Below, one piece after another: positions 39,570 to 61,805 of a stretch of 64,000 nucleotides of DNA. The stretch lies in assembly GCF_017357525.1 (NCBI RefSeq), contig NZ_CP036172.1:2268561-2332560 (forward strand). The letters are read 5' to 3'. Source of the stretch: Methanofollis aquaemaris. Its GTDB lineage: Archaea > Halobacteriota > Methanomicrobia > Methanomicrobiales > Methanofollaceae. Position 1 is the stretch's first letter, and each line of letters starts with the position of its first letter. The position numbers and the translations under genes are program-made. Under the pieces are notes generated by a model. It was not told where the DNA came from, did not search any database, and saw only the letters and a list, made by a program, of their open reading frames with translations.

Positions 39570-40286
39570 TTAGAGAGCGAGGGCCAGGGCGACAGCCGCA
39601 CGCGTGATCTCGTTTGAAGCGCCTGCGACGTCCCCGTTCACCCCACCAAAGAGACGGGTGGCAAGACTGACGAGGAGGGCCACGACGATGGCGGTCACCA
39701 GCAGCGCCCTGCCGATGAGGGCCGGACCGAGGGGAAGAAGGAAGAGCGGGAGGACCGGGACGAGGGCGTAGATGACAAAGCGCTTCTTCGCAAAACCATG
39801 GAGGTAGGCATGGATCCCTTCGTGGAAGGGGGCGCCGAGGGCGGTGATCCAGGCCATCGCGAGTTTTGCGCAGACCTCCGCGGTGAGGATGACGAAGGGG
39901 ATCGACCAGGCCGCGGAGAGGCCTTCGACCGCTATGAGGGTGGTGAGGAGTCCGCACGCCACACCCCCCGCGCCGATCTGCCGGTCGGTGAGTGCGGTGA
40001 TCCGCTTCTCTCTGCTCCCGTGGGCCATCAGTCCGTCGCCGAGGTCGAGGAGGCCGTCGAAGTGGTTGGCGCCCGAGACGATGATCGCGGCGGCGACGGC
40101 GGCGGCCGCGGCAAGGCCGGGATGACCGGAAAGGAGGAGAGCGATGCCTGCTGCGATCCCACCGATTATGTATCCCGCGAGGGGGTAGAGCCAGGTGTGC
40201 CTGGCAAAGGCGTCGAAGTCTGCAGGTCGTCCGAAGGGGAGGATGGTGCAGAACTGAAAGAGTGCCCTGAGAGCGTCGAGAGCCAT
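39570..40286 (-). CDS. cobS: Adenosylcobinamide-GDP ribazoletransferase (cobalamin synthase)
   Basis: 238 residues with about six membrane helices. It joins AdoCbi-GDP to alpha-ribazole(-phosphate), the last assembly step of B12. Motifs: ALFQFCTILPFGRP, GANHFDGLLDLGDGLMAHGSREKR (here only its location, about residues 71-94), and DRQIGAGGV. ATG 40286 gives the usual start; the frame extends upstream into non-coding sequence. Single gene, but its function ties to cobT, cobZ and cbi genes 10-20 kb away. Confidence 0.93.
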   Translation of the reverse strand: MALDALRALFQFCTILPFGRPADFDAFARHTWLYPLAGYIIGGIAAGIALLLSGHPGLAAAAAVAAAIIVSGANHFDGLLDLGDGLMAHGSREKRITALTDRQIGAGGVACGLLTTLIAVEGLSAAWSIPFVILTAEVCAKLAMAWITALGAPFHEGIHAYLHGFAKKRFVIYALVPVLPLFLLPLGPALIGRALLVTAIVVALLVSLATRLFGGVNGDVAGASNEITRAAVALALAL

Positions 40287-40360
40287 CTGGTTACTGATTT
40301 TGAGGTATGATACAATAAGTCCTGTGATATTCGTGCTGACAGGATAGGCTTTTGATGGTG

Positions 40361-40925
40361 TAGAATCTGACATGAACCCCGGGTTCAAGCATACGCGATG
40401 AAAATCTCATATTGCAGGTCTCTGAGGTCTGGAAGGATCCTTGATCCTTCTCCTTGTGACAGGGGAACGAACAGAAACCGAGTGTCGTGCCGCCCCCGCA
40501 TATCCTCTGTCCGTGGGGGGTCCGGGAGGTCAACCCCCCGGCGCGAGATGGCGGTGAAGATTCTCTGATCGGGGTGGCCCTTCTGATCATCACGCCTTCC
40601 CACATACTCCCACCGGGGGCTCTGCCCCCGGACCCCCGGGATTGCGATAGGGACGGGAAGGGAGTGAGGAGATCATGAAGAGGATGGTGTCATCCCCGGC
40701 GCTCTCTTCACGCGGGGGACTCGGGGGTGGCCCTTCTGAACATTCGCCATCACATATCAATCGCGCCGGTGGTTCTGCCCCCCTGATCCCCGGGATGAAG
40801 ATGGGGACAGGAAGGCAGAGGGGTGATCGTTCGGAGGGCGTACCCGTCCCATGCCTCTTAGTCACGCGGGGGCGGGGTGTGGTCTCGCATGATTCACACT
40901 CTAGAAGAGGGTCTATTTTCCTGAG
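40361..40925 (+). repeat. Dispersed IS-end element, copy 8 (long form)
   Basis: The left end GAATCTGACAT is followed by a perfect hairpin GAACCC-C-GGGTTC (40374-40386) and CAAGCATACGCGATGAAAATC. The core is CCGGGGGC-TCT-GCCCCCGG (40613-40631), then ACCCCCGGGATTGCGATAGGG and GCGCTCTCTTCACGCGGGG. A second, partial core follows (GGTTCTGCCCCCCTGATCCCCGGGATGAAGATGGGG, about 40772-40806). The right end resembles the B type (GATTCACACTCTAGAAGAGG). It lies between the divergent starts of cobS and the DUF3344 operon; no gene is seen. Confidence 0.7.
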
Positions 40926-41020
40926 AGTGCATTCTGGAAAACAATCCTTCCGATTAGTGTGCAATAAATAATAACAAATAAAATATTATTAATATCTGAT
41001 GTGATTGTACATCATTTTGT

Positions 41021-42823
41021 ATGAAACTCCCCCAGTTCTCCCTGATCGGATGTATCCTCTGCGCGGCAGTACTCCTTCTTGCCGCCCCGGTATCGGCAGT
41101 GTACGATTTTGAAGGTATCCCTCTCCATATGACGGCCCAGGGCGAAGTCAGGGGGGACGTGCTCACCTTCGGCACCTATGGGCTTGCGGCCCCACCGATG
41201 GAATGCACCTTCTCTCTTCCTGATAAGCCAATCTGGGCGAGAGTCTATACAGGCGTCTGGGGGGGGACCGAGCGGTACACCGGGTGGGAAGAACTCACCG
41301 TCAACAACGGAGTCCCGGTCAAGAGATCCCTCTTCGGGATTGATGACCGGAATAAAGAGACCTATGTCTCGGGCTATGGTGTCTACTGGGTCGCGCACGA
41401 CTGTACCGACCAGCTCCACGGCGGTAAGAACACCGTCGCCCTGACAACCAGCAGGGGTCTGCCTGAGAGCAGGATCGATGGGAGGGTCTATGGTGTCTTC
41501 GTCGTCGCCGTCGTGGAGGACAAGGACGGACCGGTCACCAGATACTGGATTGCCGAAGGAAACGAGAATCTCCATGGAGAAGGGTGGGCAGGGACAAACC
41601 CCACGCGACATAATGATTGTGAGATCTCGTTTGAGAAGGCAAGTCTGCTGGAAGGGGCCACTGCAGACTTCACCATGCTTCTGCTGGCCTCGACGAAAGG
41701 ACAGCCCGATTATATCCGGTTCAACGGCGAAGACCTGGGTGTCGCCCCGGACGACCCTTCGATCTATCCTGATGGGGCGCGGGATATCGGCAACGAACGG
41801 TGTTTCGATGCCACGGGCGGTGCCGGGACCGAGGCGAGATACATCGATGTCGAGAAATTCGATGTCAGCGGTCTTCTGAAGGAGACGAACCATATCTTCT
41901 TCGAGCGCGGCAGGGATCTGGACGACGACGGGACGATCACCACCACCGGGGAAAAACCTGAGGGTGAAGATTACATCCATCCCTGCTGCGCCATCCTTGC
42001 TGTCAGAAGGCCGGGGGCCGACCCGGCCCCTGACTTTTCCGTGGATGCACCGCAGGTGAGGGGGGCCTATGCCGGTGAAGAGGCTGTGGTGCAGGCAACG
42101 GCGAGGAACCATGGGGCGCGGCCTGAAGGGATGATCACGGTGATCTTCTCGGTCGATGGAGTGCCTGCAGAGACAGTAACCGTGGAGCCGGATGTCTCGG
42201 GGGTTCAGGAAGTCACAGCGAATCTCACGATGGACGAAGGCCGGCACACACTCTCGGCACGGGTCGAGACCGGGGGAGACCTCGACCTGTCGGACAACGA
42301 GGCGTCGGTCTCGGTCAGGGTCGGGACGATCCCGGATCTTGCGGTGAAGATCGGCACCCCGGTCCGCACCGGAGCCGGAGAGCCTGATGCCCAACACTCG
42401 CCCTTCCCGCTCATCGCCCTGGTTGGAGGGATCTGTGCCGCGGCCCTCCTCGCCAGGCGGCCGCCGGGAGGAAAACTTGTCGCCGTGCTGATCGCAGGAG
42501 CGGTCATTGCGGCATCATGTCCATTGGTCATATTCCCGGCCGCCGCCGCAGGATATGAGGACTACACCATCCCGGTCACGATCACGAACAACGGTGGGAG
42601 CGATGCACCGCCTTTCGCCCTCACCGTCTATCTGGACGGGGAGAAGGCGGCGGTGAAGCCCATCGAGGAAGGACTGGAGGCCGGGGCAACGGTCGAGATC
42701 GCCCTGTCTCATTACACGACACCGGGAAAACATCGTTTGAGGGTGGTCGCGGACGAGGCCGGTACGATCAGGGATGCTGAGAGAGGAAACAACGCGGCGG
42801 AGGGCGACTATGTCTTCCCATAG
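41021..42823 (+). CDS. DUF3344 + CARDB surface protein with internal membrane segment
   Basis: 600 residues. Signal peptide to about residue 26 (VLLLAAPVSA); a DUF3344 domain (about 27-330: EGIPLHMTAQGEVRGDV, WARVYTGVWGG, RYWIAEGNENLHG); a CARDB-like beta domain (about 336-435); two hydrophobic segments (about 460-478 and 484-507); and a second CARDB-like domain to the C-terminus. The second hydrophobic segment ends PAAAAG like a signal peptide, so the gene may be a fusion of two secreted proteins. First gene of the surface-protein/MacB operon. Function unknown. Confidence 0.8.
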   Translation: MKLPQFSLIGCILCAAVLLLAAPVSAVYDFEGIPLHMTAQGEVRGDVLTFGTYGLAAPPMECTFSLPDKPIWARVYTGVWGGTERYTGWEELTVNNGVPVKRSLFGIDDRNKETYVSGYGVYWVAHDCTDQLHGGKNTVALTTSRGLPESRIDGRVYGVFVVAVVEDKDGPVTRYWIAEGNENLHGEGWAGTNPTRHNDCEISFEKASLLEGATADFTMLLLASTKGQPDYIRFNGEDLGVAPDDPSIYPDGARDIGNERCFDATGGAGTEARYIDVEKFDVSGLLKETNHIFFERGRDLDDDGTITTTGEKPEGEDYIHPCCAILAVRRPGADPAPDFSVDAPQVRGAYAGEEAVVQATARNHGARPEGMITVIFSVDGVPAETVTVEPDVSGVQEVTANLTMDEGRHTLSARVETGGDLDLSDNEASVSVRVGTIPDLAVKIGTPVRTGAGEPDAQHSPFPLIALVGGICAAALLARRPPGGKLVAVLIAGAVIAASCPLVIFPAAAAGYEDYTIPVTITNNGGSDAPPFALTVYLDGEKAAVKPIEEGLEAGATVEIALSHYTTPGKHRLRVVADEAGTIRDAERGNNAAEGDYVFP

Positions 42824-43784
42824 ATCGGTCCTCGGCGTTGCTCTCCTCGCCGTGCTCCTCCTTGTCCCCGCGGTCTCAGCCACCTATGCAGGCGACAGGC
42901 CGCTTGAGACGGCGTTTCATGAAGAATTCAGTGGCGGTCACCTCTTCACCCTCGGCAACAGCACCTACAGCGGATCTCTGAAGCCCGGAGATCGGTATGC
43001 CGTCGATTTTGAGATCGAACTCCCGGAGGGTGCGGCAATACGGTACCAGCGTCTCTATGTTTACTGGGCCTGGAGCAAACTCGACCAGAAGGCGATCTAT
43101 CCCTCGGTCTCAATCACCCGCACCGACACCGGGGAACTCCTCAACAGGACAGGACGTTCTGTCGACTCCAAGGGATTCGTGAGCAAGAACGATTTTTTCT
43201 CGGGAATGGACATCTTCGAGATGGCCGCCCTCTCTCCAGGGAAGAACTCCTTCACCGTCGTCCTTGAGAATACGGCGGAGGACAACCGGACCTTTGTGGT
43301 CCAGGGGCTCGCTCTGCTCGCGGTCTACGAGAGTCCGGAGTCGCCTGAGGTTGTCTGCTGGGTGAAGGAGGGGGCCGATCTCCTGTACAGCAGTTATGGG
43401 ATCACGCCTCCCATGGCGACGAGCAGGATCGAGTTCGAGGGGACGGTCGAGAGGTCTGATCTCTCTTCAGCCGAGCTCCTCCTCGTCGCTCCTTCGGGCG
43501 GTTATACCAGAGAGAACATCCCGGAGATAAATCGGCTCTTTTTGAACCGCGAGGGAGAGAGCAGCATGCCCTCGTTCTTTGAATCGATTCTCTCCGCTCT
43601 GTTTCCGGGTTCGAATGGACGGGAGTGGGTGAACATCTTCGACTCCGACGAGACGAGGCAGGTCGGGATCGACCGCCGGGATGTGCTGCCCTATCTTCGG
43701 TCTGAGAACAATTTTGCAGCTGTCAGGGACGAAAAAGACTATCTTGTCCTTACCAACGCCGTGTTGTGGGCTGAAAAGAGGTGA
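42810..43784 (+). CDS. Secreted DUF3344-related protein
   Basis: 324 residues. Signal peptide (VALLAVLLLVPAVSA), then a beta-rich domain with IRYQRLYVYWAWSKL and NSFTVVLENTAEDNRTFVVQGLALLAVYESPE (about residues 150-180), reminiscent of DUF3344 but without a clear second half; a C-terminal region follows (FNAA-type DVLPYLRSENNFA). ATG 42810 with GGAGGGC upstream overlaps the previous stop codon by 14 bp. No membrane anchor. It precedes the ABC ATPase gene by 4 bp. Confidence 0.75.
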   Translation: MSSHRSVLGVALLAVLLLVPAVSATYAGDRPLETAFHEEFSGGHLFTLGNSTYSGSLKPGDRYAVDFEIELPEGAAIRYQRLYVYWAWSKLDQKAIYPSVSITRTDTGELLNRTGRSVDSKGFVSKNDFFSGMDIFEMAALSPGKNSFTVVLENTAEDNRTFVVQGLALLAVYESPESPEVVCWVKEGADLLYSSYGITPPMATSRIEFEGTVERSDLSSAELLLVAPSGGYTRENIPEINRLFLNREGESSMPSFFESILSALFPGSNGREWVNIFDSDETRQVGIDRRDVLPYLRSENNFAAVRDEKDYLVLTNAVLWAEKR

Positions 43785-43788
43785 AATG

Positions 43789-44451
43789 ATGGATGTCATC
43801 ATGCAGACGAGAGACCTGAACAAGGCGTACACCGAGCAGGTGACCGCACTCCACGATGTGAACATCGCCCTTGAGAGAGGGGAACTTGTCACCCTCCTCG
43901 GACGGAGCGGGAGCGGGAAGAGCACGCTCCTCAACATCCTCGGCGGGCTTGACCGGCCGACCGGGGGAGAGGTACTCATCAATGGGACGCATGTCGACTT
44001 CGACGATCGACAGGCGCTCATCACTCTCAGGAGGGAGGCGCTCGGATTTGTCTTCCAGAATTTCAATCTCATCCCGACCCTGACGGCCAGGGAGAATGTA
44101 GAGTATCCCCTTCTCTTCAACTATGCCGGGAGGGGGGTGAGAGAGAAACGGGCCCTGGCCCTCCTGGAGATGGTCGGGCTTGCGGAGAGAGCCAACCACT
44201 ATCCGCGCGAGATGAGCGGGGGAGAACAGCAACGGGTGGCGATCGCCCGCTCCCTTGTGGGAAACCCGACGATCGTGCTTGCCGACGAACCGACCGGGAA
44301 CCTGGACTCGAAGACGAGCGACGGGATCTTTGAGTTGATGCGCCAGGTGAACCGGGAGCGGGAGACGACGTTTCTGATCGTGACCCATGAGCGCGAACTC
44401 GGGAAGAGGGCCGACCGTTCCATCAAACTCCTCGACGGGAGGGTGGTGTGA
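43789..44451 (+). CDS. ABC transporter ATPase, MacB/LolD type
   Basis: 220 residues. Walker A GRSGSGKS, Q-loop FVFQNFNLIPTLTA, signature MSGGEQQRVAIAR, Walker B IVLADEPTGNLDS and the H-switch VTHERELG. The Q-loop and signature place it with the MacB/LolD exporter and lipoprotein-release class. ATG 43789 (alternatives 43786, 43801) follows AGAGGTGA. It pairs with the permease encoded next. Confidence 0.94.
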   Translation: MDVIMQTRDLNKAYTEQVTALHDVNIALERGELVTLLGRSGSGKSTLLNILGGLDRPTGGEVLINGTHVDFDDRQALITLRREALGFVFQNFNLIPTLTARENVEYPLLFNYAGRGVREKRALALLEMVGLAERANHYPREMSGGEQQRVAIARSLVGNPTIVLADEPTGNLDSKTSDGIFELMRQVNRERETTFLIVTHERELGKRADRSIKLLDGRVV

Positions 44452-44452
44452 G

Positions 44453-45676
44453 ATGAAGATGGCAAAGATATTTGAGTCCCTGAAGATCTCGGCCAGGCAG
44501 GTCGCACGGAAACGGATGCGCGTCCTGCTCACCGCCCTCGGCATCGCCATCGGCGTGGCGGCGGTGGTCGGGACCGTCTCCCTGGGCGAAGGGATCAGGT
44601 ACCAGGCGGTGGAGGCGATCAAGGAGCAGTCAGACCTGACCCTCATCGAGGCGACCGCGGATATCCGCAGCGGCACGCTTCAGTTGATCACCCCGGCGAA
44701 GATCGATGAGATCGCCGCAATACCTCATCTCAAGGGGTCATCGGCGATTGTCAGGGAGGCCTACGCAACAAAACGACAGACCTACCTGGGGGTGATGGGC
44801 GTCGACCCGGCAGAGATCGGGGGGGTGATCAAACCCAGGTTCTTCAAGGGAGAGCCGATTGATCCCGGCTCCAGACAGGCGGTCCTCGGCCATGACCTCG
44901 CCGAGACGCTCCAGCGCTACGAGGGTATCCGTCTCGGCGACTCGATCCCGATCCTGATCAGGCAGTACGACGAGGACGGTATGCCGGTGGACGTGCAGGT
45001 GGACTTCACCCTGGTCGGCGTGCTCCAGGAACGGGACGACCAGTTCGACCAGATGATGCTGATCGACCGGGGGGTCGCGCAGGAACTGCGCGGCGGCGAG
45101 GCGTCTTTCGACGGTGTCCTCATCAGGGTCGACCACCCCGAAGAGGTCTTCGGTGTGGTGGACGGGGTCAAGGCCCTCGGTCTCACCGCCACGGGAGCCT
45201 TCGAGCAGATCGAGTCGGTGAACCGCCTGATGGATGTGGTCATCCTGCTCCTTGCGTTCTTTGCCGGAGTATCCCTCATCGTGGGCGCCCTGATGATCAT
45301 GAACACGATGATCACCTCGATCTTCGAGCGGACTAGGGAGATCGGGATCACGATGGCCATCGGGGCGTCGCCCAGGGATGTGGTCCGGCTCATCCTCTTT
45401 GAATGCCTGTATATCGGGCTGATCGGCGGGGTGCTCGGCGATCTCCTCGGAATTGCCTTTGCCGGCGTCATCAACATCTTTGGGAAACCCTTCATCATCG
45501 CCCAACTGGGTGACACCTTCGCCACCTTTGCGGACGCGGAGATCACCCTGATCACACCGGGGCTTCTTGTAATCGGGATTCTTATCGCCATTGTGTTGTC
45601 CGAGGTTTCCGGGTTCTATCCGGCGCTCAAGGCGGCAAGGCTCAATCCGGTGACGGCGATCAGGAGTGGAGAGTGA
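44453..45676 (+). CDS. MacB-like ABC permease (FtsX fold)
   Basis: 407 residues. One N-terminal membrane helix (LLTALGIAIGVAAVVGTVSL, about 25-45), a large extracytoplasmic MacB core domain (about 50-260), and three C-terminal helices of the FtsX domain (VVILLLAFFAGVSLIVGALMI; LIGGVLGDLLGIAFAGVI; LLVIGILIAIVLSEVSGFYPALKAARLNP). The last motif is conserved in the family. Such permeases use mechanical movement to extract or push substrates rather than a through channel. It overlaps or abuts the neighbouring genes. Confidence 0.92.
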   Translation: MKMAKIFESLKISARQVARKRMRVLLTALGIAIGVAAVVGTVSLGEGIRYQAVEAIKEQSDLTLIEATADIRSGTLQLITPAKIDEIAAIPHLKGSSAIVREAYATKRQTYLGVMGVDPAEIGGVIKPRFFKGEPIDPGSRQAVLGHDLAETLQRYEGIRLGDSIPILIRQYDEDGMPVDVQVDFTLVGVLQERDDQFDQMMLIDRGVAQELRGGEASFDGVLIRVDHPEEVFGVVDGVKALGLTATGAFEQIESVNRLMDVVILLLAFFAGVSLIVGALMIMNTMITSIFERTREIGITMAIGASPRDVVRLILFECLYIGLIGGVLGDLLGIAFAGVINIFGKPFIIAQLGDTFATFADAEITLITPGLLVIGILIAIVLSEVSGFYPALKAARLNPVTAIRSGE

Positions 45677-48600
45677 TGATGTTCCCCGCAGAAAGGGTGA
45701 CATGTCTTGCCCTTCTTCTCCTTCTCCTCCTGCCTGCCTGCGCCGTTGCCGACCAGTATGTGGGGGGCATCCCTCTCACGACCGTCAACGGAGATGTCGT
45801 CTCAGGCGGGGTTTATGTAAATTCCTTTGTCGGGACCGGGATGGACCGTGATGTCTCGAAGGAATTTTCGCTGCCCGAGTATACGGAGATCAAATGGGCG
45901 CGCCTCTATGTGTCGGTCTACTGTGCACATATGCAGAACAACTACGAACATCGTGCGACCGTACAATTCGACGGCGGTTCGGGAACAAAGACTCTTGGGG
46001 TGGAGGAACTGCGGGTGCCATACTCCTTCCCGATCGACGGGGGTTCAGGGCCGGTCTGGGTGAACGACCACTGCAACCGGGTGACGAGCGACTACCTGAT
46101 GTGGTACGATGTCACCGATGCCATCAAGGAAAGATGCGTCACTGCGATGGTCAAGACCGATCAACCCGAGGGTTACTCGGGAACCTTTGACGGACGGATC
46201 AAGATCGTCACTCTGGTCGTTGCCTATGATGATGGCGACGCCGACGAGGTGTATTATTGGGTGAACCAGGGGCATGATGTCCACTCATATTATGTCGAGG
46301 ATTATCTGGGCGATATCTATGAGGGGGAGACGATCTTTGCCACAGGGAACATCCCTGAAGATGACGAACGAGAGTGTGTCGCCGAACTCTCGTTCGTGCA
46401 TATGGCAAGCAAGGTGGGAGAATTTACCTTTAATTCCGAACCATTCGAAGCGGCGAAGTCACAGGGGGCGTACTCCGGCTACCATACCGAAGACGTCACC
46501 GACCTGGTTCTTCCCGGGACCGACAGCCTTCTCACTTACACCCGGGATCTCAGTGTCAGCGGGAGCGGCGGGAGTTATCTCGGGGCATACTTCAAGATCC
46601 CGCTCGCCGTTCTGTCGGTCCGTTACCCCGGCAAAGAGGTGGGGAGCATCGAGGTGACTTCTTCCCCGGCCGGTGCGGCGGTCTACCTGGACGATGAAGA
46701 GACTCAGTGGGTTACCAACACGACTATCAGCGGGATCGGTGCCGGTGACCACTCGGTGAGGGTCGAACTCGATCGCTACCACGTACCTGACGATCGGTAC
46801 ATCGAGGTGAAGAATGGGAAAAACACCACGGTTCATTTTGACCTCGAAGCGCGGACCGGGAGCATCGAGGTGACGACCGAGCCGTCAGGGGCCTGGATAT
46901 ATCTTGAGGGTGGTGATTACGAGGATTTAACGAATATGTCTCTCCAGACTCCGGCCACGATTGATGGACTCATAATCGGAGAATATACTGTGGAGGTGAG
47001 AAAGGGAGGATATGAAACGGCATACCAGACTGTGAAGGTGCAGGAGGACGAAACGGTCGGGGCGGATCTGGTATTCGGAGGAAGCGGTTCTGAGGGAGGA
47101 AATGACTCTGAGTTCGGGTACACTGGCAAGAAACTAGATCTCCTCACCACCGGCACCCTCCACGGGAACCTCAACTATTATGAGTTCAGTGACTATACCG
47201 GGCTGATCCATGCCGGAGAGACGAGGGAGTTTGCGATCACGATCCCGATGCCTGAGAACGGTACGGTCAGGTCTGCCAGGCTGTACATCTACACCACCTG
47301 GGGGCATGACGAGAAGCGCAAAGAAGGAACCAAAGGCAGGATCACGCTGAAGATCGACGGGGTCGATATCAAGGCAGATCAGGTATACCGTGACCGGAAA
47401 AACGAGGGCATCTACAATTATCTCCTTGAGACTCATGCCTACAACATCACCACGCTTAAGGGTGGCGTGGCCGGCAAGCATATGGTGACGGTGACCAACG
47501 ATGGGCGCAAAGATGATGTCTTTGCGACCTATGGACCCGGTGTGCTGGTCGTGGTCGAAAACCCGGCAGAACCGGAGATCACCTACTGGATTGCAGAGGG
47601 CTCAGACACCATCTATGCCAACCCGGATTTCAGCACCACGAGCGACGACTGCATCACGAAGGCACTCTTCGATGGCCAGATCGATCTCGCCGATGCGGGG
47701 GGGGCACGGCTGATCCTGGTGACCACGGCCGGGTCTGGGGTGGACGACGACGAGCACAGGATCACCTTCAATGGGGGCAAGTGGTTCAATCTCCTCACCG
47801 GCGGGTCGTCTGCGATTAGTGTGGCCGGGATAGATGTGAGGCCTTATCTGATGCCTTCAGGGAACGAGGCCGGGATCCAGAGTTACATCAACTCGACAAA
47901 GGGGGACTATATGGAGAACCGGGGCGCTATCCTCGTCGTCAGGCACGGCACCCCCCCGGCGGGGGTTGCGGTGAATGTCACCGCCGCCGCGAATGTGTCG
48001 GTCGGGAAGAGCAAACGGTTCACTCTGAACGAATCGAATGGGAGGCTTGAGGCCACGCACCTCACCTTCGACGATGGGGCGCTCGAACTCTTCATCTCCG
48101 AGGGAACGGTGATCACCGACGGTGCCGGGAAGCGGTTCACGGCGCTGACACTGCAGGTGCTCAGCCCCGGTGACGTTCTGCGGGCGTACGCGATCGGCGA
48201 CAAGGGGCTGGAATCCGATATTCCCATCCTTCTGGTAATCCATACGGACCGTCTCGGTCTTTCGGGTGTTCATCTTGTGAGATACGATGATTCTTTGGGC
48301 CGCTGGCAGCCGGTGGAGGTCGAGGCTGCGGATGGTCAACTCTCCGCCAGGATCCGGCAGGGAGGAACATATGCGCTTCAAGAAGGGGGTGATATCGAGA
48401 TCTTTCAGCCTCTGGTCGACCTGATTGGCGGCGTTGCGACGGCGTTCTTCGGGATCTTCGGGGTCGAGATCTCAGGAGAGAACTCCGGCACGCTGCAGGA
48501 ACCTGATATCATGACGGGTAATTTGTCCGGGCAGGCGGTCGAACCGACTGCCGCGGCTGAGGTTCCATCCGTCACCCAGGAGATGCCTCCTGGTGATGTC

Positions 48601-49761
48601 ACGGAGATGCGGTTCGATCTCTCGGTGCTCTCCACGCCGCCGGGCGCTCTCATCGATCTCGATGGGGAGTATACCGGCAGGACGACGCCTGCCACTCTCG
48701 AATCGTTGGCAGGAGGGAATCACACTGTCAGGATGAGCATGGACGGGTTCGAACCGGTGGAGAGGACGGTCTATCTTGAGCGCGACGACGAGGTCCATCT
48801 CCAGTTTGAATCAGGTTCTTCAGAGTTGATGAAGCAGACGACCGCCACCGGACCGTTGCGCGGGTGGGAGGAGAACCGGCACGGCGGAGTGTATGTCGAA
48901 TCCTTCCCCGAGGGGGCGGAAATCTATGTGGACGGCAGGAAGAGCAACAAAAAGACGCCCGCATTGATCTATGGGCTGAAAGAAGGGCTGCATACGATCA
49001 AGGCGAAGAAGAAAAATGTCGCGTTCGGGAATGAGAAAGAGCGGGTCTGGATCGTGAAGAACTCGGTGTCGCAGGTGAAATTCAGCAGTGGTTCGAAAGG
49101 GTTTGAGCGCTCTCTCTCGATCGAGTCTGAGAAGTATTCGGGCTCTTCTTTCTCGGTCAGCGGGAGGGATCTCGGGTACAGGGTTCCAAAGCAGGTCGAT
49201 GTCGGGGGGATCGATGCATATCTCACGGTCCATGACAATGGCAGTTTCCTCTCGCAGAAGATCCCGAATACTGTTCAATCGAACGAGACAGTGGTCATCA
49301 GCCCGTTGCTCGCCGCACCCTGTGGACTCCTCGTCACCTCGGTGCCGTCTGGAGCTCTGATCTTCATCGATGGCTTTTCCACCGGGTGTGCGACACCGTA
49401 CCTCGTCGAGAACATCTCGGAGGGCAGGCACCTGGTCTCGGTCTCGAAGCCTGGATATATTCCTGAGGAGCGGGTGGTCCTGCTGACCGACAATCGCCTT
49501 AAGGAACAGGACGCGGAGGTTGGTCTGAACCTGGACCCGTATGCGCACGGGTCACTTACGGTTGGGAGCACGCCGGAAGGTGCGAAGATCTATCTCTTCG
49601 GCAAGGACACCGGAGAAAAAACACCTCATACGTTCCATTACCTCGGCATCGGGTCATATGATGTGAAGGTCGTGGGGAAGGAGGGTTCAAAGACGCTTGA
49701 GGATGTGGTGGTGGTACCGTATGAGAAGAGCGAGTGCCAGGTGGATCTTACTGCGGAGTGA
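45676..49761 (+). CDS. Giant surface protein: two DUF3344 domains and six PEGA repeats
   Basis: About 1361 residues. The signal peptide LALLLLLLLPACAVA ends near residue 25 (LPAC could be a lipobox). A first DUF3344 domain (about 27-310) has YYWVNQGHDVHSYYVEDYLG. PEGA repeats lie near 320-390 and 394-460. A second DUF3344 domain (about 475-760) has TYWIAEGSDTIY. A further domain spans 770-950, and four more PEGA repeats lie near 980, 1069, 1215 and 1292 (for example SVPSGALIFIDG, STPEGAKIYLFG). There is no C-terminal anchor. PEGA domains are surface layer-associated. ATG 45676 overlaps the permease stop codon. Confidence 0.88.
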   Translation: MMFPAERVTCLALLLLLLLPACAVADQYVGGIPLTTVNGDVVSGGVYVNSFVGTGMDRDVSKEFSLPEYTEIKWARLYVSVYCAHMQNNYEHRATVQFDGGSGTKTLGVEELRVPYSFPIDGGSGPVWVNDHCNRVTSDYLMWYDVTDAIKERCVTAMVKTDQPEGYSGTFDGRIKIVTLVVAYDDGDADEVYYWVNQGHDVHSYYVEDYLGDIYEGETIFATGNIPEDDERECVAELSFVHMASKVGEFTFNSEPFEAAKSQGAYSGYHTEDVTDLVLPGTDSLLTYTRDLSVSGSGGSYLGAYFKIPLAVLSVRYPGKEVGSIEVTSSPAGAAVYLDDEETQWVTNTTISGIGAGDHSVRVELDRYHVPDDRYIEVKNGKNTTVHFDLEARTGSIEVTTEPSGAWIYLEGGDYEDLTNMSLQTPATIDGLIIGEYTVEVRKGGYETAYQTVKVQEDETVGADLVFGGSGSEGGNDSEFGYTGKKLDLLTTGTLHGNLNYYEFSDYTGLIHAGETREFAITIPMPENGTVRSARLYIYTTWGHDEKRKEGTKGRITLKIDGVDIKADQVYRDRKNEGIYNYLLETHAYNITTLKGGVAGKHMVTVTNDGRKDDVFATYGPGVLVVVENPAEPEITYWIAEGSDTIYANPDFSTTSDDCITKALFDGQIDLADAGGARLILVTTAGSGVDDDEHRITFNGGKWFNLLTGGSSAISVAGIDVRPYLMPSGNEAGIQSYINSTKGDYMENRGAILVVRHGTPPAGVAVNVTAAANVSVGKSKRFTLNESNGRLEATHLTFDDGALELFISEGTVITDGAGKRFTALTLQVLSPGDVLRAYAIGDKGLESDIPILLVIHTDRLGLSGVHLVRYDDSLGRWQPVEVEAADGQLSARIRQGGTYALQEGGDIEIFQPLVDLIGGVATAFFGIFGVEISGENSGTLQEPDIMTGNLSGQAVEPTAAAEVPSVTQEMPPGDVTEMRFDLSVLSTPPGALIDLDGEYTGRTTPATLESLAGGNHTVRMSMDGFEPVERTVYLERDDEVHLQFESGSSELMKQTTATGPLRGWEENRHGGVYVESFPEGAEIYVDGRKSNKKTPALIYGLKEGLHTIKAKKKNVAFGNEKERVWIVKNSVSQVKFSSGSKGFERSLSIESEKYSGSSFSVSGRDLGYRVPKQVDVGGIDAYLTVHDNGSFLSQKIPNTVQSNETVVISPLLAAPCGLLVTSVPSGALIFIDGFSTGCATPYLVENISEGRHLVSVSKPGYIPEERVVLLTDNRLKEQDAEVGLNLDPYAHGSLTVGSTPEGAKIYLFGKDTGEKTPHTFHYLGIGSYDVKVVGKEGSKTLEDVVVVPYEKSECQVDLTAE

Positions 49762-49777: not shown

Positions 49778-49784
49778 GCCTTTT

Positions 49785-50336: not shown

Positions 50337-50789
50337 CTATTCTGTGTTCCCGGAGGTGAAACTCTCGCTGTACAGCCGCGAGGTGTTCCCGGCGATGAGT
50401 CCGGCGACGGCATCGTCGAGGAAGGGCCCGAGTTCGCCGAGGATGCCCGGTTTGTTCTGGTCGTAGCGGGTGAACTCGAAGCGGGCATAGGTGCCCCCGA
50501 TGATCTCGGCGATGGCCATCCCGATGATCTCGTCGGAGAGGAGGAAGACCGGGTCGTCGGCGATCTCCGAGTCGTCCCGGTTCTCGTAGAGTTCTTCTTC
50601 GAGGAGGATGGCGCCGAGGAGGAGGGAGGAGACGTTTGGGTCCTGATATGATGCCAGGATCTTCTCCTGCAGGCGCGTCCTCGCCTCCTCGGGGCTCATC
50701 CCATGCGAGACATAGAGTCCCATGCCCGCGTCGACGATGGCCCCGGTGGTGATTCCTTTTCCTCTGAGCCGCTCTTCGATCTCAAACAT
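50337..50789 (-). CDS. cobZ: Alpha-ribazole phosphatase of the CobZ/PgpA type
   Basis: 150 residues of the PgpA-like fold used by archaeal CobZ, which removes phosphate from alpha-ribazole-5'-phosphate (or adenosylcobalamin-5'-phosphate). The segment KPGILGELGPFLDDAVAGLIAG and SHGMSPEEARTRLQEKI are typical. ATG 50789 gives the expected start; a longer frame upstream overlaps cobT and is not coding. The divergent neighbour is cobT. PgpA (phosphatidylglycerophosphatase) is the alternative; the cob context favours CobZ. Confidence 0.8.
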   Translation of the reverse strand: MFEIEERLRGKGITTGAIVDAGMGLYVSHGMSPEEARTRLQEKILASYQDPNVSSLLLGAILLEEELYENRDDSEIADDPVFLLSDEIIGMAIAEIIGGTYARFEFTRYDQNKPGILGELGPFLDDAVAGLIAGNTSRLYSESFTSGNTE

Positions 50790-50807
50790 AGGAGAATTTT
50801 TGGTCAG

Positions 50808-50826: not shown

Positions 50827-51837
50827 ATGACATTTCTCTCCGAGTCTCCGTCCATTGAGTTTTCAAGACCGCTCTTTGCAAGCGTCCTTGGAAATACCGC
50901 ACTCTCAATGGTGCCGGGGGTATCGGGCGCGGGGCCGTCTCCGAAGAAGACGGTTTTCACCCCGATCCTCGACGCCGAGATGATCACCACCGGGGCGATC
51001 ACCTCGATGCCCCTCAAGCCCAACACCCCTACCGGGTGCCCGACGCCGGCGGTGATCACCAGGGCGATGGCGACACTCACCGGGATCGAACCGGTCTTCG
51101 TGAACGCCGGCCTCTTCAACCCGCCGACGGTGCCGTGCATCGACGTCTACGGGGCGCCGGGCGGTGACCCGAGAGAGGGCGACGCCGTCCCGACGGTCAG
51201 GGATCTTCTTACGGCCGGTGAGCGGGTCGGCCGCCTCCTCTCCAGGTGCGCCGACCTCCTGGTCCTGGGTGAGTGCGTGCCCGGCGGGACGACGACCGCT
51301 CTCTGTGTCCTGCGCGCCCTCGGGTATGAAGCCAGGGTATCGAGCAGTTTTGTGGAGAACCCCGTGCACCTGAAAGATGAGATCTGTAGAGGTGTGCTGG
51401 AGCGGGTGGAGAGCGAAGGGGCGACCGACGCCCTCGACGTCGTGCGGATCGGGGGCGATCCCATGATGCCGGTGGCCGCGGGGATCGCGAGTACCTTTGA
51501 AGGCACGCTCGTCTTTGCCGGGGGCACCCAGATGCTTGCCGTCGACGCCGTGCTCAAGGGCCTGGGGAGATCCATGGTCCCGCTTGCCACGACCGAGTAC
51601 GTGCGCACCGATGCCTCGGCAAACTTCGAGGAGGCCGTGGCCGCAGTGGGGGCGAAGGCCTATTATGTGGACCCTGACTTCGGCACCATCGGCGATGCGG
51701 GGATCGGCAGGTACTGCGAGGGCGAGGTGAAAGAGGGGATGGGTGCCGGCGGCGCCATGTTCCTTGCCCGTGTGATGGGTTACTCAGAAGAGGAGATCAG
51801 GTCGGCCATCCTCTCCACGGTCAGATCGTTCAGATAA
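50827..51837 (+). CDS. cobT: Archaeal CobT-type nicotinate-nucleotide:base phosphoribosyltransferase
   Basis: 336 residues of the TIGR00303/UPF0284 type: GNTALSMVPGVSGAGPSPKKT, VPGGTTTALCVLRALGYEARVSSSF (about residues 155-179), and FAGGTQMLAVDAVLKGLG. It activates the lower-ligand base to an alpha-ribotide for B12. ATG 50827 (preceded by TTGAT) matches the family start. Divergent from cobZ. T-tract at 51856-51862 follows. Confidence 0.87.
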   Translation: MTFLSESPSIEFSRPLFASVLGNTALSMVPGVSGAGPSPKKTVFTPILDAEMITTGAITSMPLKPNTPTGCPTPAVITRAMATLTGIEPVFVNAGLFNPPTVPCIDVYGAPGGDPREGDAVPTVRDLLTAGERVGRLLSRCADLLVLGECVPGGTTTALCVLRALGYEARVSSSFVENPVHLKDEICRGVLERVESEGATDALDVVRIGGDPMMPVAAGIASTFEGTLVFAGGTQMLAVDAVLKGLGRSMVPLATTEYVRTDASANFEEAVAAVGAKAYYVDPDFGTIGDAGIGRYCEGEVKEGMGAGGAMFLARVMGYSEEEIRSAILSTVRSFR

Positions 51838-55968: not shown

Positions 55969-56520
55969 GTGCAAGTGAACTTTACTTACATGGATGAGGG
56001 ACTTCGGGGCGGACCGACGCAGGATGAAGTGGCGGCGGTCGCCCTCTGGCACCTGAGGCTTGCGCCGGGGTGTGCCTTTGCAGATGTCGGGTGCGGGACA
56101 GGGAAGATCGCGGTGGCCGCGGCCCGGACCGCCGGCCGGGTGCTTGCAATCGACCGCCGGTCAGAAGCGGCGGCCTGCACGAGGGCCGCGGCGGAGACAG
56201 CCGGTGCCGACAACATCGAGACCGTCTGCGGTGAAGCCGCGGAGGTCCTCGCGGGTGCGGGTCCCCTTGACGCCGCCTTCGTCGGCGGTTCGCGCGATCT
56301 TGAGCAGGTGCTCGAGGTGCTTGCCGGGGAGGTGCGCGGTCGGGTGGTCGTCGACTGCGTCCTCCTGGAGACTCTCCACCGGGCGGTGGGGACGATGCAG
56401 GATCTCGGGATCTTCAGGGAGGTCATCTCCCTCCAGGTGGCGCGCTCTCACCCCCTTGGACAGGGGATGATGATGCGCCCGGCCAACCCGGTCTGGCTCG
56501 TCGTCGGGGAGGTGGCCTGA
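55969..56520 (+). CDS. cbiT: Cobalt-precorrin-6B (C15)-methyltransferase/decarboxylase CbiT
   Basis: 183 residues. SAM site FADVGCGTGKIAVAAA (about 38-53) and the family start GGPTQDEVAAVALWHLRL; AIDRRSEA is the acidic strand-2 end. It methylates C15 and decarboxylates the C12 acetate in the anaerobic corrin route. Start GTG 55969 is likely; GTG 55975 or ATG 55990 are possible. First gene of the cbiTLFGHCDE operon. Confidence 0.9.
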   Translation: MQVNFTYMDEGLRGGPTQDEVAAVALWHLRLAPGCAFADVGCGTGKIAVAAARTAGRVLAIDRRSEAAACTRAAAETAGADNIETVCGEAAEVLAGAGPLDAAFVGGSRDLEQVLEVLAGEVRGRVVVDCVLLETLHRAVGTMQDLGIFREVISLQVARSHPLGQGMMMRPANPVWLVVGEVA

Positions 56521-56521
56521 G

Positions 56522-57130
56522 ATGCTGGTCGGTGTCGGAATCGGCCCGGGCGACCCTGAACTCCTCACCGTGAAGGCCGTGCGCCTGATCCGGGAGGCCG
56601 ACGTGGTCTATGTCCCCGGCCGGGTGGCCGCGAAGATCATCGCCCCGTACCGTACCGATGTCGAGATCCTCTCCTTCCCCATGACCGGGGACGAGGCCGA
56701 GATCGCGCGGTGCATGGAGCAGAACGCCGATACCGTGGCGGCGCCTGCGGAGAACGGGCTCTGTGTCTTCTGCATCCTCGGTGATCCGAACTTCTATGGC
56801 ACCTTCGGGAGGCTCTCGGCCGTCCTCGCCGACCGCCACCCGGCGGTCAGGTGCACGACCGTCCCCGGCATCAGTGCGATCACCGCCTTTGCCTCGGTCG
56901 CGGACGTCCCGGTCTCGGGCGGGATCGGCGTGAGCGACGGGTCCGAGGAAGCGTGTCGTCTCCTCCTCAAGGTGACGCATCCGAAGGAGACGGCCGCACG
57001 TCTCCGCACCGAGGGCTTCACCGATTTCGTCCTGGTGGAACGGATGTATATGGACGGCGAGCAGGTCTATCGGGGCGAAGAACTCCCTGAGAAGAGCAAT
57101 TATTTCAGTGTACTCTTTGCGAGGCGGTGA
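56522..57130 (+). CDS. cbiL: Cobalt-precorrin-2 C20-methyltransferase
   Basis: 202 residues of the tetrapyrrole methylase fold: VGVGIGPGDPELLTVKAVRLI, CILGDPNFYGTFGRL, and TTVPGISAITAFASVADVPV. The DPNFYGTF motif and the following VPGISA distinguish C20 enzymes. One base after the cbiT stop codon. The protein is slightly shorter than many CbiL. Confidence 0.9.
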   Translation: MLVGVGIGPGDPELLTVKAVRLIREADVVYVPGRVAAKIIAPYRTDVEILSFPMTGDEAEIARCMEQNADTVAAPAENGLCVFCILGDPNFYGTFGRLSAVLADRHPAVRCTTVPGISAITAFASVADVPVSGGIGVSDGSEEACRLLLKVTHPKETAARLRTEGFTDFVLVERMYMDGEQVYRGEELPEKSNYFSVLFARR

Positions 57131-57132
57131 CG

Positions 57133-57849
57133 ATGGAAAAGATCTATATTGTCGGGGCCGGGCCGGGAAACCCGGACCTGATCACGGTGAAGGGAAACGA
57201 TCTCCTGATGCGGGCCGACGTCCTCATCTACGCGGGGTCGCTCGTGAACCCGGTGCTGGTCGAGCGGTCGCCGGCGCCTGAGAAGTACGATTCCTGGGGG
57301 ATGAAACTCCCCGAGATGGTGGCGGTGATGGTCGAGGCAGCCAGGGCCAGGAAGACGGTGGTCCGTCTTCACTCAGGCGACCCGTCTCTGTACGGGGCGA
57401 TCGTCGAACAGATCGCCGAACTGGAACGGGCCGGGATCGAGGTCGAGGTGGTCCCTGGCGTCTCCTCGATGTTCGGGGCGGCGGCGACACTCAAGACTCA
57501 ATATACCCTCCGCGGCGTCTCTGAGTCGGTGGTCGTCACCAGACCCGCGGGGGCGACGCTGGAGACCGACCAGATCGCCGAACTCTCGCGAACCGGGGCG
57601 ACGATGGTCGTCTTCCTCGGCACCGAGCATATGGAGGAGGTGCTCGAAAAGGTCGAGTGCCCACCTGAGACTCCGGCGGCGGTCGTCTATCATGCCACCT
57701 GGCCTGACGAGCAGGTGGTGCGTGGCACGGTCGCCGACCTCGCGGCAAAGGCGCGGGCGGCCGGGATCGAACGCTCGGCCCTGATCATCATCGGCGGCGT
57801 GGTGAATGCCACCGCATCCGACTACACCAACTCAGACCTCTACGGATGA
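57133..57849 (+). CDS. cbiF: Cobalt-precorrin-4 C11-methyltransferase
   Basis: 238 residues: IYIVGAGPGNPDLITVKG, YAGSLVNPVLV, LHSGDPSLYGAIVEQ, VPGVSSMFGAAATL and TRPAGATLE. The YAGSLV and HSGDPSLYGA motifs are diagnostic for CbiF/CobM. ATG 57133 with GGCGGTGA; the GTG at 57127 overlaps the cbiL end. Confidence 0.95.
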   Translation: MEKIYIVGAGPGNPDLITVKGNDLLMRADVLIYAGSLVNPVLVERSPAPEKYDSWGMKLPEMVAVMVEAARARKTVVRLHSGDPSLYGAIVEQIAELERAGIEVEVVPGVSSMFGAAATLKTQYTLRGVSESVVVTRPAGATLETDQIAELSRTGATMVVFLGTEHMEEVLEKVECPPETPAAVVYHATWPDEQVVRGTVADLAAKARAAGIERSALIIIGGVVNATASDYTNSDLYG

Positions 57850-58736
57850 AGACGGCAGTCATTGCGCTGAGGCGCTTCGAGGACGAAGGGCGGTTGGTCG
57901 CCAAGGCCGTCGGCGGCGAGTTTCTCCCGTACTCCCCCGGGGTCTTCGAGGAGGCCTTCGCCGCCTACGAGGCGATCGTCGCCGTGATGTCGGCCGGGAT
58001 CGCGGTCAGGAAATGCGCCCCCTTCCTCACCACCAAGTGGCGGGACCCGGCGGTGGTGGTGGTCGGCCCTGACCTCAGGTTTGCGGTCCCAATTCTCGGC
58101 GGGCATCATGGTGCAAACGATCTCGCCCGCGAGATCGGGGCGAAGACCGGTGCGGTCCCGGTGATCTCGACCGCCACCGAGGCCCTGGGTCGCCCGTGCG
58201 TCGAGGGCGTCGCGGCGTCGGTCGGGGCCGAGATCGCAAATCCCGCCTCCACCCTCCCGGTGAACGCGGCGATGCTCGACGGCGAGGTTCCGGTCTATAC
58301 CGTCGGCGGCCCGGCGATCGTCGGCGGCCCGGCGATCGTCGTCGCCTCTCCGGCCGTCTCGGTCCTGGTGGAGGGCGGCGAGTATGTCGTCGGTCTCGGG
58401 TGCCGGCGGGGGACTGCGACTGAATCGGTCGTGGCGGCGGTGGGGGCGGCCCTCAGGACGGCCGGGCTCGGGCCAGAGGAGGTGCTCGTCTATGCCACGA
58501 CCACGAAGAAATCAGACGAGCCCGGCCTGCGGGACGGCGTCGCCGCGCTGGGCGGTGTCCTCCTGTACCTCGGCGACGAGACGCTCAACGCCCTGACGCC
58601 CCCCTCGCCCTCGCGGGCCGGGCTGATCGGGCTTGTCGGCGTGGCCGAGCCGGCGGTGCTCGCTCTTGCACGCCGCGGCGAACTGATACTGAAGAAAACG
58701 GTCTATGGGGATGTGACAGTTGCAATCGGACGATAA
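57846..58736 (+). CDS. cbiG: Cobalt-precorrin-5A hydrolase
   Basis: 296 residues with the CbiG N-domain (VAVMSAGIAVRKCAPFLTTKWRDPAVVVV located about residues 40-68), central GGHHGANDLAREIG, and the CobE/GbiG C-domain (VGLGCRRGTATESVVAAV). It opens the delta-lactone ring and releases acetaldehyde. ATG overlaps the cbiF TGA (ATGA). A 6-residue tandem duplication is present (18-bp unit at 58301-58336). Confidence 0.94.
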   Translation: MKTAVIALRRFEDEGRLVAKAVGGEFLPYSPGVFEEAFAAYEAIVAVMSAGIAVRKCAPFLTTKWRDPAVVVVGPDLRFAVPILGGHHGANDLAREIGAKTGAVPVISTATEALGRPCVEGVAASVGAEIANPASTLPVNAAMLDGEVPVYTVGGPAIVGGPAIVVASPAVSVLVEGGEYVVGLGCRRGTATESVVAAVGAALRTAGLGPEEVLVYATTTKKSDEPGLRDGVAALGGVLLYLGDETLNALTPPSPSRAGLIGLVGVAEPAVLALARRGELILKKTVYGDVTVAIGR

Positions 58737-59487
58737 AAGAGGGAAACTCTCAATTGTGGGCATCGGCCCGGGCGGAATCGCGCAGATGACCGGGCAGGCG
58801 GCGGACGCGATCCGCGACGCCGAGTATGTCATCGGCAATGCCTTTTATCTGGAACAGATCGCCCCCCTCCTCGGGGGCCAGGAAGTGATCAGGAGTTCGA
58901 TGGGCAGGGAGGTCGAGCGGGCGCAGAAGTGCGTCGACCTCGCCCGCACCCACCGCGTGGTCATGGTCAGCGGGGGCGACCCCGGCGTGTACGGGATGGC
59001 GAGTATCGTGCTCGAAGTGATGAACCGGGCCGGTGCGCCGGTGGAGTACGAGGTGGTGCCTGGCGTCACGGCCTCGTGCGCCGGGGCCTCGCTTCTCGGT
59101 TCCCCGCTCACCGGCGATCATGTCACCCTCTCGCTCTCGGACCTCCTCACGCCGTGGGAGACGATCGAGACAAGACTCGACCTCGCCTTCCTGATGGGTG
59201 TGCCGGTGGCCCTGTACAACCCGAAGAGTCATGGCAGGCCTGAAAACCTCTCCATGGCACTTGCGATCGCCCTCAGGCACCGCTCGCCCGGGACGCCGGT
59301 GGGGCTGGTGCGGAACGCCTACCGCGACGGGCAGGAGACGGCGGTGACGACCCTCGGCGATCTTGCTGAGGACGACTCGGCCGTCGACATGCGCACGCTC
59401 GTCATCGTCGGCGGGACCGAGACTTTCAGGATGCAGGACGGCGGGATGCTCACACCGAGAGGATATGGGAGGAAGTATGTATATTGA
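58720..59487 (+). CDS. cbiH: Cobalt-precorrin-3B C17-methyltransferase
   Basis: 255 residues: LSIVGIGPGGIAQMTGQAADAI, VSGGDPGVYGMAS, VVPGVTASCAGASLLGSPLTGD, and LSLSDLLTPWETIETRL. This C17 ring-contraction methylase has the extra SDLLTPW motif. Start is TTG 58720 inside the end of cbiG (17-bp overlap); there is no ATG nearby in frame. Confidence 0.93.
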   Translation: MQSDDKRGKLSIVGIGPGGIAQMTGQAADAIRDAEYVIGNAFYLEQIAPLLGGQEVIRSSMGREVERAQKCVDLARTHRVVMVSGGDPGVYGMASIVLEVMNRAGAPVEYEVVPGVTASCAGASLLGSPLTGDHVTLSLSDLLTPWETIETRLDLAFLMGVPVALYNPKSHGRPENLSMALAIALRHRSPGTPVGLVRNAYRDGQETAVTTLGDLAEDDSAVDMRTLVIVGGTETFRMQDGGMLTPRGYGRKYVY

Positions 59488-60103
59488 TCCCGGCGCCGAC
59501 ACGCCCGAAGGGTATGCGATCTCGCGGACGAGCAGGTCGCTGGCCCGCCAGGTGATCGGGGACCGGACGCCTGAAGATCGGATCAGGCAGCGGTGTGCGA
59601 TCTCGGTCGGCGACTTCGTGATGGCCGACCTGGTGCGGTTCAAGGGAGAGGCGGTCGAGGCCGGGCTCTCAGCCCTGGAGCAGGGCGCCCCCATCATCAC
59701 CGACATCCATATGGTGCAGATGGGGATCAGGAAGAAGGAGCACCACTCAGAGGTGCTCTGCGCCCTTGACTATGGGCAGGAGATCGCCGCGGCGCGCGGG
59801 ATCACCCGCTCGTCCGCCGGCCTCCTCGCCCTCCGCGATCGGCTGGAGGGCGCGGTCGTGGTGATCGGGAACGCCCCTTCGTCGCTCCTCGCCCTCTGTG
59901 CGATGGTCAGGGAGGGCGTGCGGCCCGCGCTGGTCATCGGGATGGCGGTCGGGTTTGTGAATGCGGCGGAGTCCAAGGAGGAGTTGCGCACCCTCGACAT
60001 CCCCTCGATCTCGACGCAGGGGACGCGGGGCGGGACGCCGCCGGCGGTCGCGGCGATGAACGAGATCGTCACGATGTTTGTGGAGCGGACGCGTGGAGCA
60101 TAA
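59477..60103 (+). CDS. cbiC: Cobalt-precorrin-8 methylmutase
   Basis: 208 residues: EGYAISRTSRSLARQVIGD, RIRQRCAISVGD, ITDIHMVQMGI (catalytic residues near the conserved segment), GNAPSSLLALC and MAVGFVNAAESKEEL. It moves the C11 methyl to C12. ATG 59477 overlaps the cbiH end by 11 bp. Confidence 0.95.
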   Translation: MYIDPGADTPEGYAISRTSRSLARQVIGDRTPEDRIRQRCAISVGDFVMADLVRFKGEAVEAGLSALEQGAPIITDIHMVQMGIRKKEHHSEVLCALDYGQEIAAARGITRSSAGLLALRDRLEGAVVVIGNAPSSLLALCAMVREGVRPALVIGMAVGFVNAAESKEELRTLDIPSISTQGTRGGTPPAVAAMNEIVTMFVERTRGA

Positions 60104-61760: not shown

Positions 61761-61805
61761 CAATCTGGTATGATCGGAGCTGCGGCTCCATCGGTCAGGA
61801 ATATC

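What the first reader, a model, noticed from the sequence alone, without database searches (positions are those of the whole stretch)
41021..49761. Five-gene operon joining a MacB-type ABC exporter to giant DUF3344/CARDB/PEGA surface proteins
Genes overlap or abut: DUF3344+CARDB protein, a second secreted DUF3344-like protein, ABC ATPase, MacB/FtsX permease, and a 1361-residue protein with two DUF3344 domains and six PEGA repeats. The tight coupling suggests the exporter handles, or is gated by, these surface proteins, for example releasing or placing them in the S-layer. I know of no described system with this composition.
Basis: partly seen in the sequence, partly recalled or inferred. Interest (0 to 1): 0.75.

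Follow-up and report, generated by a model that had tools for sequence, protein, structure and literature searches.

The report
Surface-protein ABC operon in B12 locus
A conserved five-gene set in methane-producing archaea joins an ATP-driven membrane machine to large surface proteins of unknown function, and because it keeps turning up beside vitamin-B12 genes and B12-type importers it is probably part of how these cells capture corrinoids or related metal-ring compounds from outside.

Summary
The five genes (DUF3344-CARDB-CARDB; DUF3344; ABC ATPase; MacB/FtsX permease; DUF3344/PEGA giant) overlap or abut. The same order recurs at nearly every cassette locus examined in the order Methanomicrobiales. 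A four-gene core without the giant occurs in other families of the phylum. The permease is a distinct subfamily: orthologues score above 415 bits, other MacB-type permeases below 95.

The cassette lies inside a cobamide locus: cobS on one side; cobZ-like, cobT, cbiTLFGHCDE and cobN on the other. Across 35 cassette genomes, cobN is within 15 kb in 16 (0.6 expected) and a FecCD/BtuC-type importer in 22 (1.7 expected). None of 38 other MacB permeases is near cobN. Methanoregula-group operons contain a BtuF-like binding protein; Methanosarcina-like genomes carry an ECF importer beside the genes.

Best reading, not proven: an ATP-driven surface apparatus for acquiring corrinoids or a related metallo-tetrapyrrole. 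DUF3344 double jelly-roll domains would capture ligand, and the MacB-type ABC would drive release and hand-off rather than export. Ligand binding and mechanism are inferred. Placement of the surface proteins by the ABC remains the main rival.

The parts
41021..42823 (+). Gene 1 (P1), 600 aa: signal peptide, DUF3344 (41105-42004), CARDB (42026-42340), transmembrane hairpin (~42398-42532), CARDB (42509-42820). Proposed membrane-embedded partner of the ABC.
   Evidence: Pfam DUF3344 119 bits, CARDB 76 bits; domain positions; hairpin in orthologues; AF2 model pLDDT 74
42810..43784 (+). Gene 2 (P2), ~324 aa secreted single-domain DUF3344 protein; predicted double jelly roll
   Evidence: Pfam 212 bits; start from junction; AF2 pLDDT 90, pTM 0.90
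43786..44451 (+). Gene 3, ~221 aa ABC ATPase (MacB/LolD-like), Walker A, signature and Walker B motifs intact
   Evidence: PF00005 123 bits; NCBIfam LolD 238 bits, below its cut-off; conserved motifs
44453..45676 (+). Gene 4, ~407 aa MacB/FtsX-type permease, distinct subfamily
   Evidence: PF12704 79 bits, PF02687 74 bits; gap between orthologues and other MacB permeases
45673..49761 (+). Gene 5 (P5), 1362 aa secreted giant: DUF3344 (45757-46620), PEGA x2 (46642-47073), DUF3344 (47116-47940), PEGA x4 (48613-49746)
   Evidence: Pfam DUF3344 404 bits, PEGA 218 bits with 6 stretches; positions
40968..41020 (+). AT-rich promoter-like stretch with a TTAATAT element; a TGATGT-N6-ACATCA inverted repeat here is not conserved in relatives
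39570..40388 (-). cobS, adenosylcobinamide-GDP ribazoletransferase, next gene upstream (start uncertain)
   Evidence: TIGR00317 156 bits, cut-off 110
50337..50790 (-). cobZ-like alpha-ribazole phosphatase, next gene downstream (start estimated)
   Evidence: TIGR03161 128 bits, below cut-off 152.5
50836..51837 (+). cobT, nicotinate mononucleotide-dependent phosphoribosyltransferase (start estimated)
   Evidence: TIGR00303 278 bits, cut-off 240
55969..61678 (+). cbi operon: cbiT, cbiL, cbiF, cbiG, cbiH, cbiC, cbiD, cbiE
   Evidence: NCBIfam
61770..64000 (+). cobN cobaltochelatase subunit, runs past the window end; the only copy in this genome

Best explanation
The operon encodes an ATP-energised envelope complex for acquiring corrinoids (cobamides or precursors), or a closely related metallo-tetrapyrrole. 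DUF3344 domains (predicted double jelly rolls), carried on PEGA/CARDB stalks in gene 5 and in neighbouring anchored giants, capture the ligand at or above the S-layer. Gene 1, held in the membrane by a hairpin between its CARDB domains, and secreted gene 2 form the extracytoplasmic part of the MacB-type ABC. ATP hydrolysis moves that part (mechanotransmission, no substrate crossing the ABC itself), releasing ligand to a BtuF-like lipoprotein with a BtuC-type importer, or to an ECF importer. CobN and the Cob/Cbi enzymes then use the product. Shown by computation: the genes, their order and conservation, predicted topology, the DUF3344 model, and the linkage to cobamide and importer genes. Inferred: ligand binding, the complex, the direction of work and the hand-off.
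For: Same cassette at nearly all order loci examined and a 4-gene core in other families of the phylum. In the window it lies between cobS and cobZ-like/cobT, followed by cbiTLFGHCDE and cobN. cobN within 15 kb of the permease in 16/35 genomes (0.60 expected) and within 30 kb in 21/35 (1.2); FecCD 22/35 (1.7) and 26/35 (3.2). Control: 0 of 38 other MacB permeases within 30 kb of cobN. A Peripla_BP_2 protein (BtuF among its weaker hits) lies inside the operon in six Methanoregula-group loci. In Methanosarcina-like genomes the permease and a DUF3344 gene lie with ECF importer genes, in one also cobN and chlID. G044 has no cassette, yet its DUF3344 giants lie beside a PBP2-FecCD-ABC-CobN operon. 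cobN in 14/17 cassette-positive versus 13/44 negative genomes, Fisher p 4e-4. Precedents: DUF4465 jelly-roll proteins bind B12 (PMC13398666), and B12-binding surface-associated proteins encoded with transport genes are known in Bacteroides (PMC8941943).
Against: No ligand binding was tested. FecCD/Peripla_BP_2 families also carry iron, heme and other cargo, and CobN resembles BchH. MacB-type ABCs are better known for outward work (export, lipoprotein release, signalling). DUF3344 has no detectable solved homologue and no B12-binding protein appeared among the 50 best fold matches shown. Some cassette genomes have no cobN (3/35) or none nearby. cobN and FecCD are often neighbours, so the two enrichments are not independent, and related genomes are not independent samples.
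Confidence: 0.45

Rival explanations
1. Surface-protein placement machine: the MacB-type ABC acts like LolCDE, extracting or releasing Sec-exported DUF3344/PEGA proteins from the membrane and putting them into or through the S-layer; gene 1 is the membrane adaptor, gene 5 and companion giants are clients.
For: Conserved coupling; ATPase and permease resemble LolD/LolCE as well as MacB; all 17 permease-positive relatives have 4-17 DUF3344 hits, negatives 0-3.
Against: DUF3344 giants occur in genomes without the cassette, such as G044, and in this genome far from it; several carry an ordinary signal peptide and C-terminal membrane anchor that should suffice for surface display. It does not explain linkage to cobN, importers and cob genes. 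LolD/LolCE scores are below curated cut-offs.
Confidence: 0.27
2. The substrate is not a corrinoid but another metal complex (heme, nickel or cobalt tetrapyrrole, siderophore); the machine works as in the best explanation.
For: FecCD/Peripla_BP_2 hits are non-specific (IsdE, ferrichrome, BtuF); Methanoperedens plasmids place DUF3344 beside NikR, CbiMNQO and ECF genes (PMC9674854).
Against: The window neighbours are specifically cobamide genes (cobS, cobT, cbi operon), and cobS is next to the cassette in related genomes too.
Confidence: 0.2
3. Efflux or detoxification: the ABC pair works like HrtBA, removing excess metal-tetrapyrrole or biosynthetic intermediates, with the DUF3344 proteins as a surface sink.
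For: HrtBA, a heme exporter, is mentioned with MacB-family transporters (PMC5985334); linkage to a de novo corrin operon in the window.
Against: Linkage elsewhere is to importers (BtuC-type, ECF). Large stalked surface proteins are not a known feature of such efflux pairs (own knowledge).
Confidence: 0.1
4. Adhesion or aggregation module whose nearness to cob genes reflects genome organisation only.
For: DUF3344 turned up in a fibrillar-adhesin screen, function ambiguous (PMC9210967); CARDB/PEGA stalks and Thr-rich anchors are adhesin-like.
Against: Repeated linkage in different arrangements and families, with 0 of 38 control permeases near cobN.
Confidence: 0.1

Closest known systems
MacB / LolCDE / FtsEX / YtrF group (type VII, mechanotransmission ABC transporters)
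   Same: Permease has MacB_PCD and FtsX domains; paired LolD/MacB-like ATPase; solved relatives YtrF, MacB, LolF, LolE
   Different: ATPase is a separate gene, unlike MacB; no MacA-type adaptor in the operon; below NCBIfam cut-offs for MacB, LolC/E, LolD and FtsX; forms its own subfamily
Bacteroides surface B12-capture proteins (BtuH, BtuG, DUF4465/BtuJ)
   Same: Surface or secreted binding proteins, DUF4465 a jelly roll, encoded beside B12 transport genes; possible functional parallel (PMC13398666, PMC8941943)
   Different: DUF3344 is a different family by sequence with no fold match shown to them; the Bacteroides systems use TonB and an outer membrane, absent here
Gram-positive Isd-type heme capture (surface NEAT proteins, IsdE, IsdF)
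   Same: Logic of surface binders passing ligand to a Peripla_BP_2 lipoprotein and FecCD permease (own knowledge; IsdE is among the HMM hits)
   Different: No NEAT domains; a MacB-type ABC is added
Fibrillar adhesins with DUF3344 (PMC9210967)
   Same: DUF3344 on stalk domains
   Different: No ABC pair or cob linkage described there; function left ambiguous

Membership tests
MacB-type (type VII) ABC transporter superfamily | Permease with MacB_PCD and FtsX domains | tested here: met
   PF12704 79.2 bits, PF02687 74.0 bits, both above cut-off
MacB-type (type VII) ABC transporter superfamily | Partner ATPase with intact Walker A, signature and Walker B motifs | tested here: met
   GRSGSGKST, SGGEQQR and VLADEPTGNLD in the window sequence, conserved in 50 sequences
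MacAB-TolC macrolide exporter (MacB proper) | Fused ATPase-permease scoring above PRK10535 | tested here: not met
   Separate genes; 90 and 208 bits versus cut-off 966
MacAB-TolC macrolide exporter (MacB proper) | MacA-like adaptor in the operon | tested here: not met
   No such domain in the five genes
LolCDE lipoprotein releasing system | LolD and LolC/E equivalog scores | tested here: not met
   238 versus 307.75 and 80.8 versus 362.45
FtsEX | FtsE/FtsX equivalog scores | tested here: not met
   FtsE 205.5 versus 264.85; FtsX families 18-34 bits, all below cut-off
DUF3344 (PF11824) | Match above gathering score | tested here: met
   Genes 1, 2 and 5: 119, 212, 404 bits versus 27.2
DUF4465 / BtuH B12-binding proteins | Sequence or fold relationship | tested here: not met
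   No Pfam match, no PDB sequence match, none among the 50 fold matches shown; no direct superposition was possible
Corrinoid uptake system | Genomic linkage to cobamide genes and importers | tested here: met
Corrinoid uptake system | Binds or transports corrinoids | not testable with these tools
   Needs binding and uptake assays

The most novel reading that the evidence does not exclude
A new kind of energised micronutrient capture in single-membrane archaea: a MacB-type ABC transporter does not export but, much as TonB-ExbBD does in Gram-negative bacteria, powers a surface receptor of DUF3344 double-jelly-roll proteins to deliver corrinoids to BtuFCD or ECF importers; DUF3344 would then be a new corrinoid-binding domain.
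Probability: 0.3. Interest if true: 0.9.

Novelty: new variant of a known kind. Interest (0 to 1): 0.7.

Why it matters
Hydrogenotrophic methanogens need cobamides for methyl transfer to coenzyme M, yet no surface capture system for corrinoids is known in archaea (own knowledge). This gives a large uncharacterised surface family a concrete, testable function and links a conserved ABC subfamily to it. It would also show a MacB-type ABC serving acquisition. If the role turns out to be surface-protein placement instead, it would be a Lol-like route in archaea, also undescribed in the library searched.

Tried and rejected
Conserved operator: the inverted repeat upstream of the cassette is not conserved in relatives; only an AT-rich element recurs. 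RNA elements: Rfam found only a tRNA in the window. Mobile insertion by flanking repeats: the similar stretches on both sides belong to a dispersed intergenic repeat with about 50 matches in the genome, so they say nothing about the cassette. PDB fold search of DUF3344: best matches (PM2 capsid protein, PNGase F, Kex2/furin) are weak and give no ligand; a sequence profile search of PDB found nothing. The wide scan of genome contigs was diluted by generic MacB hits and named only five orthologous loci. Literature: no paper found linking MacB with CARDB or S-layer in methanogens, or PEGA with cobalamin, in the sense meant here.

Full report
Observation. Orthologue lengths and junction sequence put the starts at 41021, 42810, 43786, 44453 and 45673; successive junctions are a 14-nt overlap, a 1-nt gap, a 1-nt gap and a 4-nt overlap. 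Each flank has roughly 0.6 kb of GC-rich intergenic repeat. The arrangement is a probable single transcription unit (inferred; no transcript data).

Conservation. Searching 61 relatives with the permease gave two sharply separate groups: orthologues at 49-100% identity and above 415 bits (plus one contig-end fragment), and other MacB-type permeases below 95 bits. ORF and HMM annotation of 20-kb stretches around the orthologues showed the same order: DUF3344-CARDB-CARDB, DUF3344, ATPase, permease, DUF3344/PEGA giant. Exceptions in the order are contig ends, one genome (G045) in which only a PEGA part of gene 5 follows the permease, and one-gene insertions between permease and gene 5. The orthologue is present in 47 of 232 genomes of the order and in 41 of 393 sampled genomes of the phylum. 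Outside the order the four-gene core mostly occurs without the PEGA giant; in Methanosarcina-like genomes (judged from genome size and content, not by name) the permease sits with one DUF3344 gene only, and in one genome (G287) with an ATPase but no DUF3344. Named members are Methanoculleus, Methanoregula, Methanolinea and Methanocalculus. Pairwise distances of the five genes correlate at 0.88-0.96, as expected for co-inheritance; vertical descent alone would also give high values.

Anatomy. Gene 1 has a hydrophobic hairpin between its two CARDB domains; at least one segment is seen in all 52 orthologues and two in most, and the model places helices at 462-477 and 484-499. With a signal peptide this puts both CARDB domains and the DUF3344 domain outside. 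Genes 2 and 5 look secreted, without a C-terminal anchor in most genomes. Companion DUF3344 giants next to several cassettes carry a Thr-rich stalk with a C-terminal membrane anchor, or a dockerin-like end (my reading of the sequences). DUF3344 is modelled with high confidence as an all-beta protein (pLDDT 90, pTM 0.90); 'double jelly roll' is my reading of the strand order and fold matches. No solved protein is clearly related. The weak Kex2/furin match agrees with a published DALI hit to a P_proprotein domain (PMC9210967). Gene 1 orthologues share near-invariant WGG, NxNLHGEGW, DxDxDG and EGExYxHP motifs; the DxDxDG stretch resembles a calcium loop (inference).

Context. This was the unexpected result. 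The gene upstream is cobS; downstream come a cobZ-like gene and cobT, then cbiT, L, F, G, H, C, D, E and cobN. In 35 cassette genomes of the order, with only 0-3 cobN genes each, cobN lies within 15 kb of the permease in 16 (0.60 expected from uniform placement) and within 30 kb in 21 (1.2 expected). FecCD importers lie within 15 kb in 22 (1.7) and 30 kb in 26 (3.2). None of 38 non-orthologous MacB permeases is within 30 kb of cobN, and the own genome's other DUF3344 loci are at least 415 kb away. The arrangements differ between groups: cobS neighbours in the window's genus, cobN-chlID or cobN-ABC-FecCD-PBP2 upstream in others, a Peripla_BP_2 gene between permease and gene 5 in six Methanoregula-group loci, and in Methanosarcina-like genomes ECF importer genes (fused EcfA, CbiQ-like T component, and an unnamed 363-aa membrane protein that I take for the S component), in one of them with cobN and chlID. 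G044, which lacks the cassette, still has DUF3344/PEGA giants beside a PBP2-FecCD-ABC-CobN operon. cobN is present in 14 of 17 cassette-positive and 13 of 44 negative relatives, Fisher p 4e-4. DUF3344 counts are 4-17 in positives and 0-3 in negatives, partly by construction because the cassette itself contributes four. Caveats: related genomes are not independent, and cobN and FecCD are often neighbours of each other.

Mechanism. MacB-type transporters are thought to use ATP to do work outside the membrane without moving substrate through themselves (PMC5985334). Combined with the linkage, the most economical account is an energised surface receptor for corrinoids handing ligand to BtuFCD or ECF importers. 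A published parallel for the binding step is DUF4465, a jelly-roll family whose members bind B12 (PMC13398666), though DUF3344 is not related to it by any test here. The main rival, placement of the surface proteins by the ABC, fits the coupling but not the cobamide linkage. Substrate identity is the weakest point: FecCD and Peripla_BP_2 matches do not distinguish corrinoid, heme and siderophore.

Novelty. Only two papers in the library mention DUF3344, neither this operon. The ABC core is a new subfamily of a known kind; the composite system and its cobamide link appear undescribed in what I could search.

Noticed in passing
window 40390-40970 and 49780-50340: Copies of a GC-rich dispersed intergenic repeat flank the cassette; about 50 related stretches occur across the genome.
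   Followed up: partly
window 41900-41985 (gene 1 residues ~294-321): A near-invariant RGxDLDxDG...EGExYxHP stretch in the gene 1 DUF3344 domain looks like a calcium-binding loop; the gene 2 domain lacks it.
   Followed up: no
L044:880-4755 and L046:1691-4627: Companion DUF3344/CARDB giants end in dockerin-like sequences, while others (L040, L049, L051, L063) end in a Thr-rich stalk plus membrane anchor.
   Followed up: no
L162, L164, L165, L166-L170: A conserved 359-363 aa protein with a NEW3-like N-terminal region and several membrane helices, unmatched in NCBIfam and (one member tested) Pfam, sits with the permease/DUF3344 genes and is a candidate new ECF S component.
   Followed up: partly
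L193:2391-19267 (G044): A genome without the cassette has DUF3344/PEGA giants beside a PBP2-FecCD-ABC-CobN operon.
   Followed up: partly
G005:C1:2464606 and G005:C1:2500684 (L039, L040): One genome carries two divergent cassettes about 36 kb apart (permeases 91% and 54% identical to the window's), suggesting two cassette types in the genus.
   Followed up: no
window 38659-39957: A sulfite reductase-like gene with ferredoxin domains next to cobS; it also weakly matches CobG.
   Followed up: no
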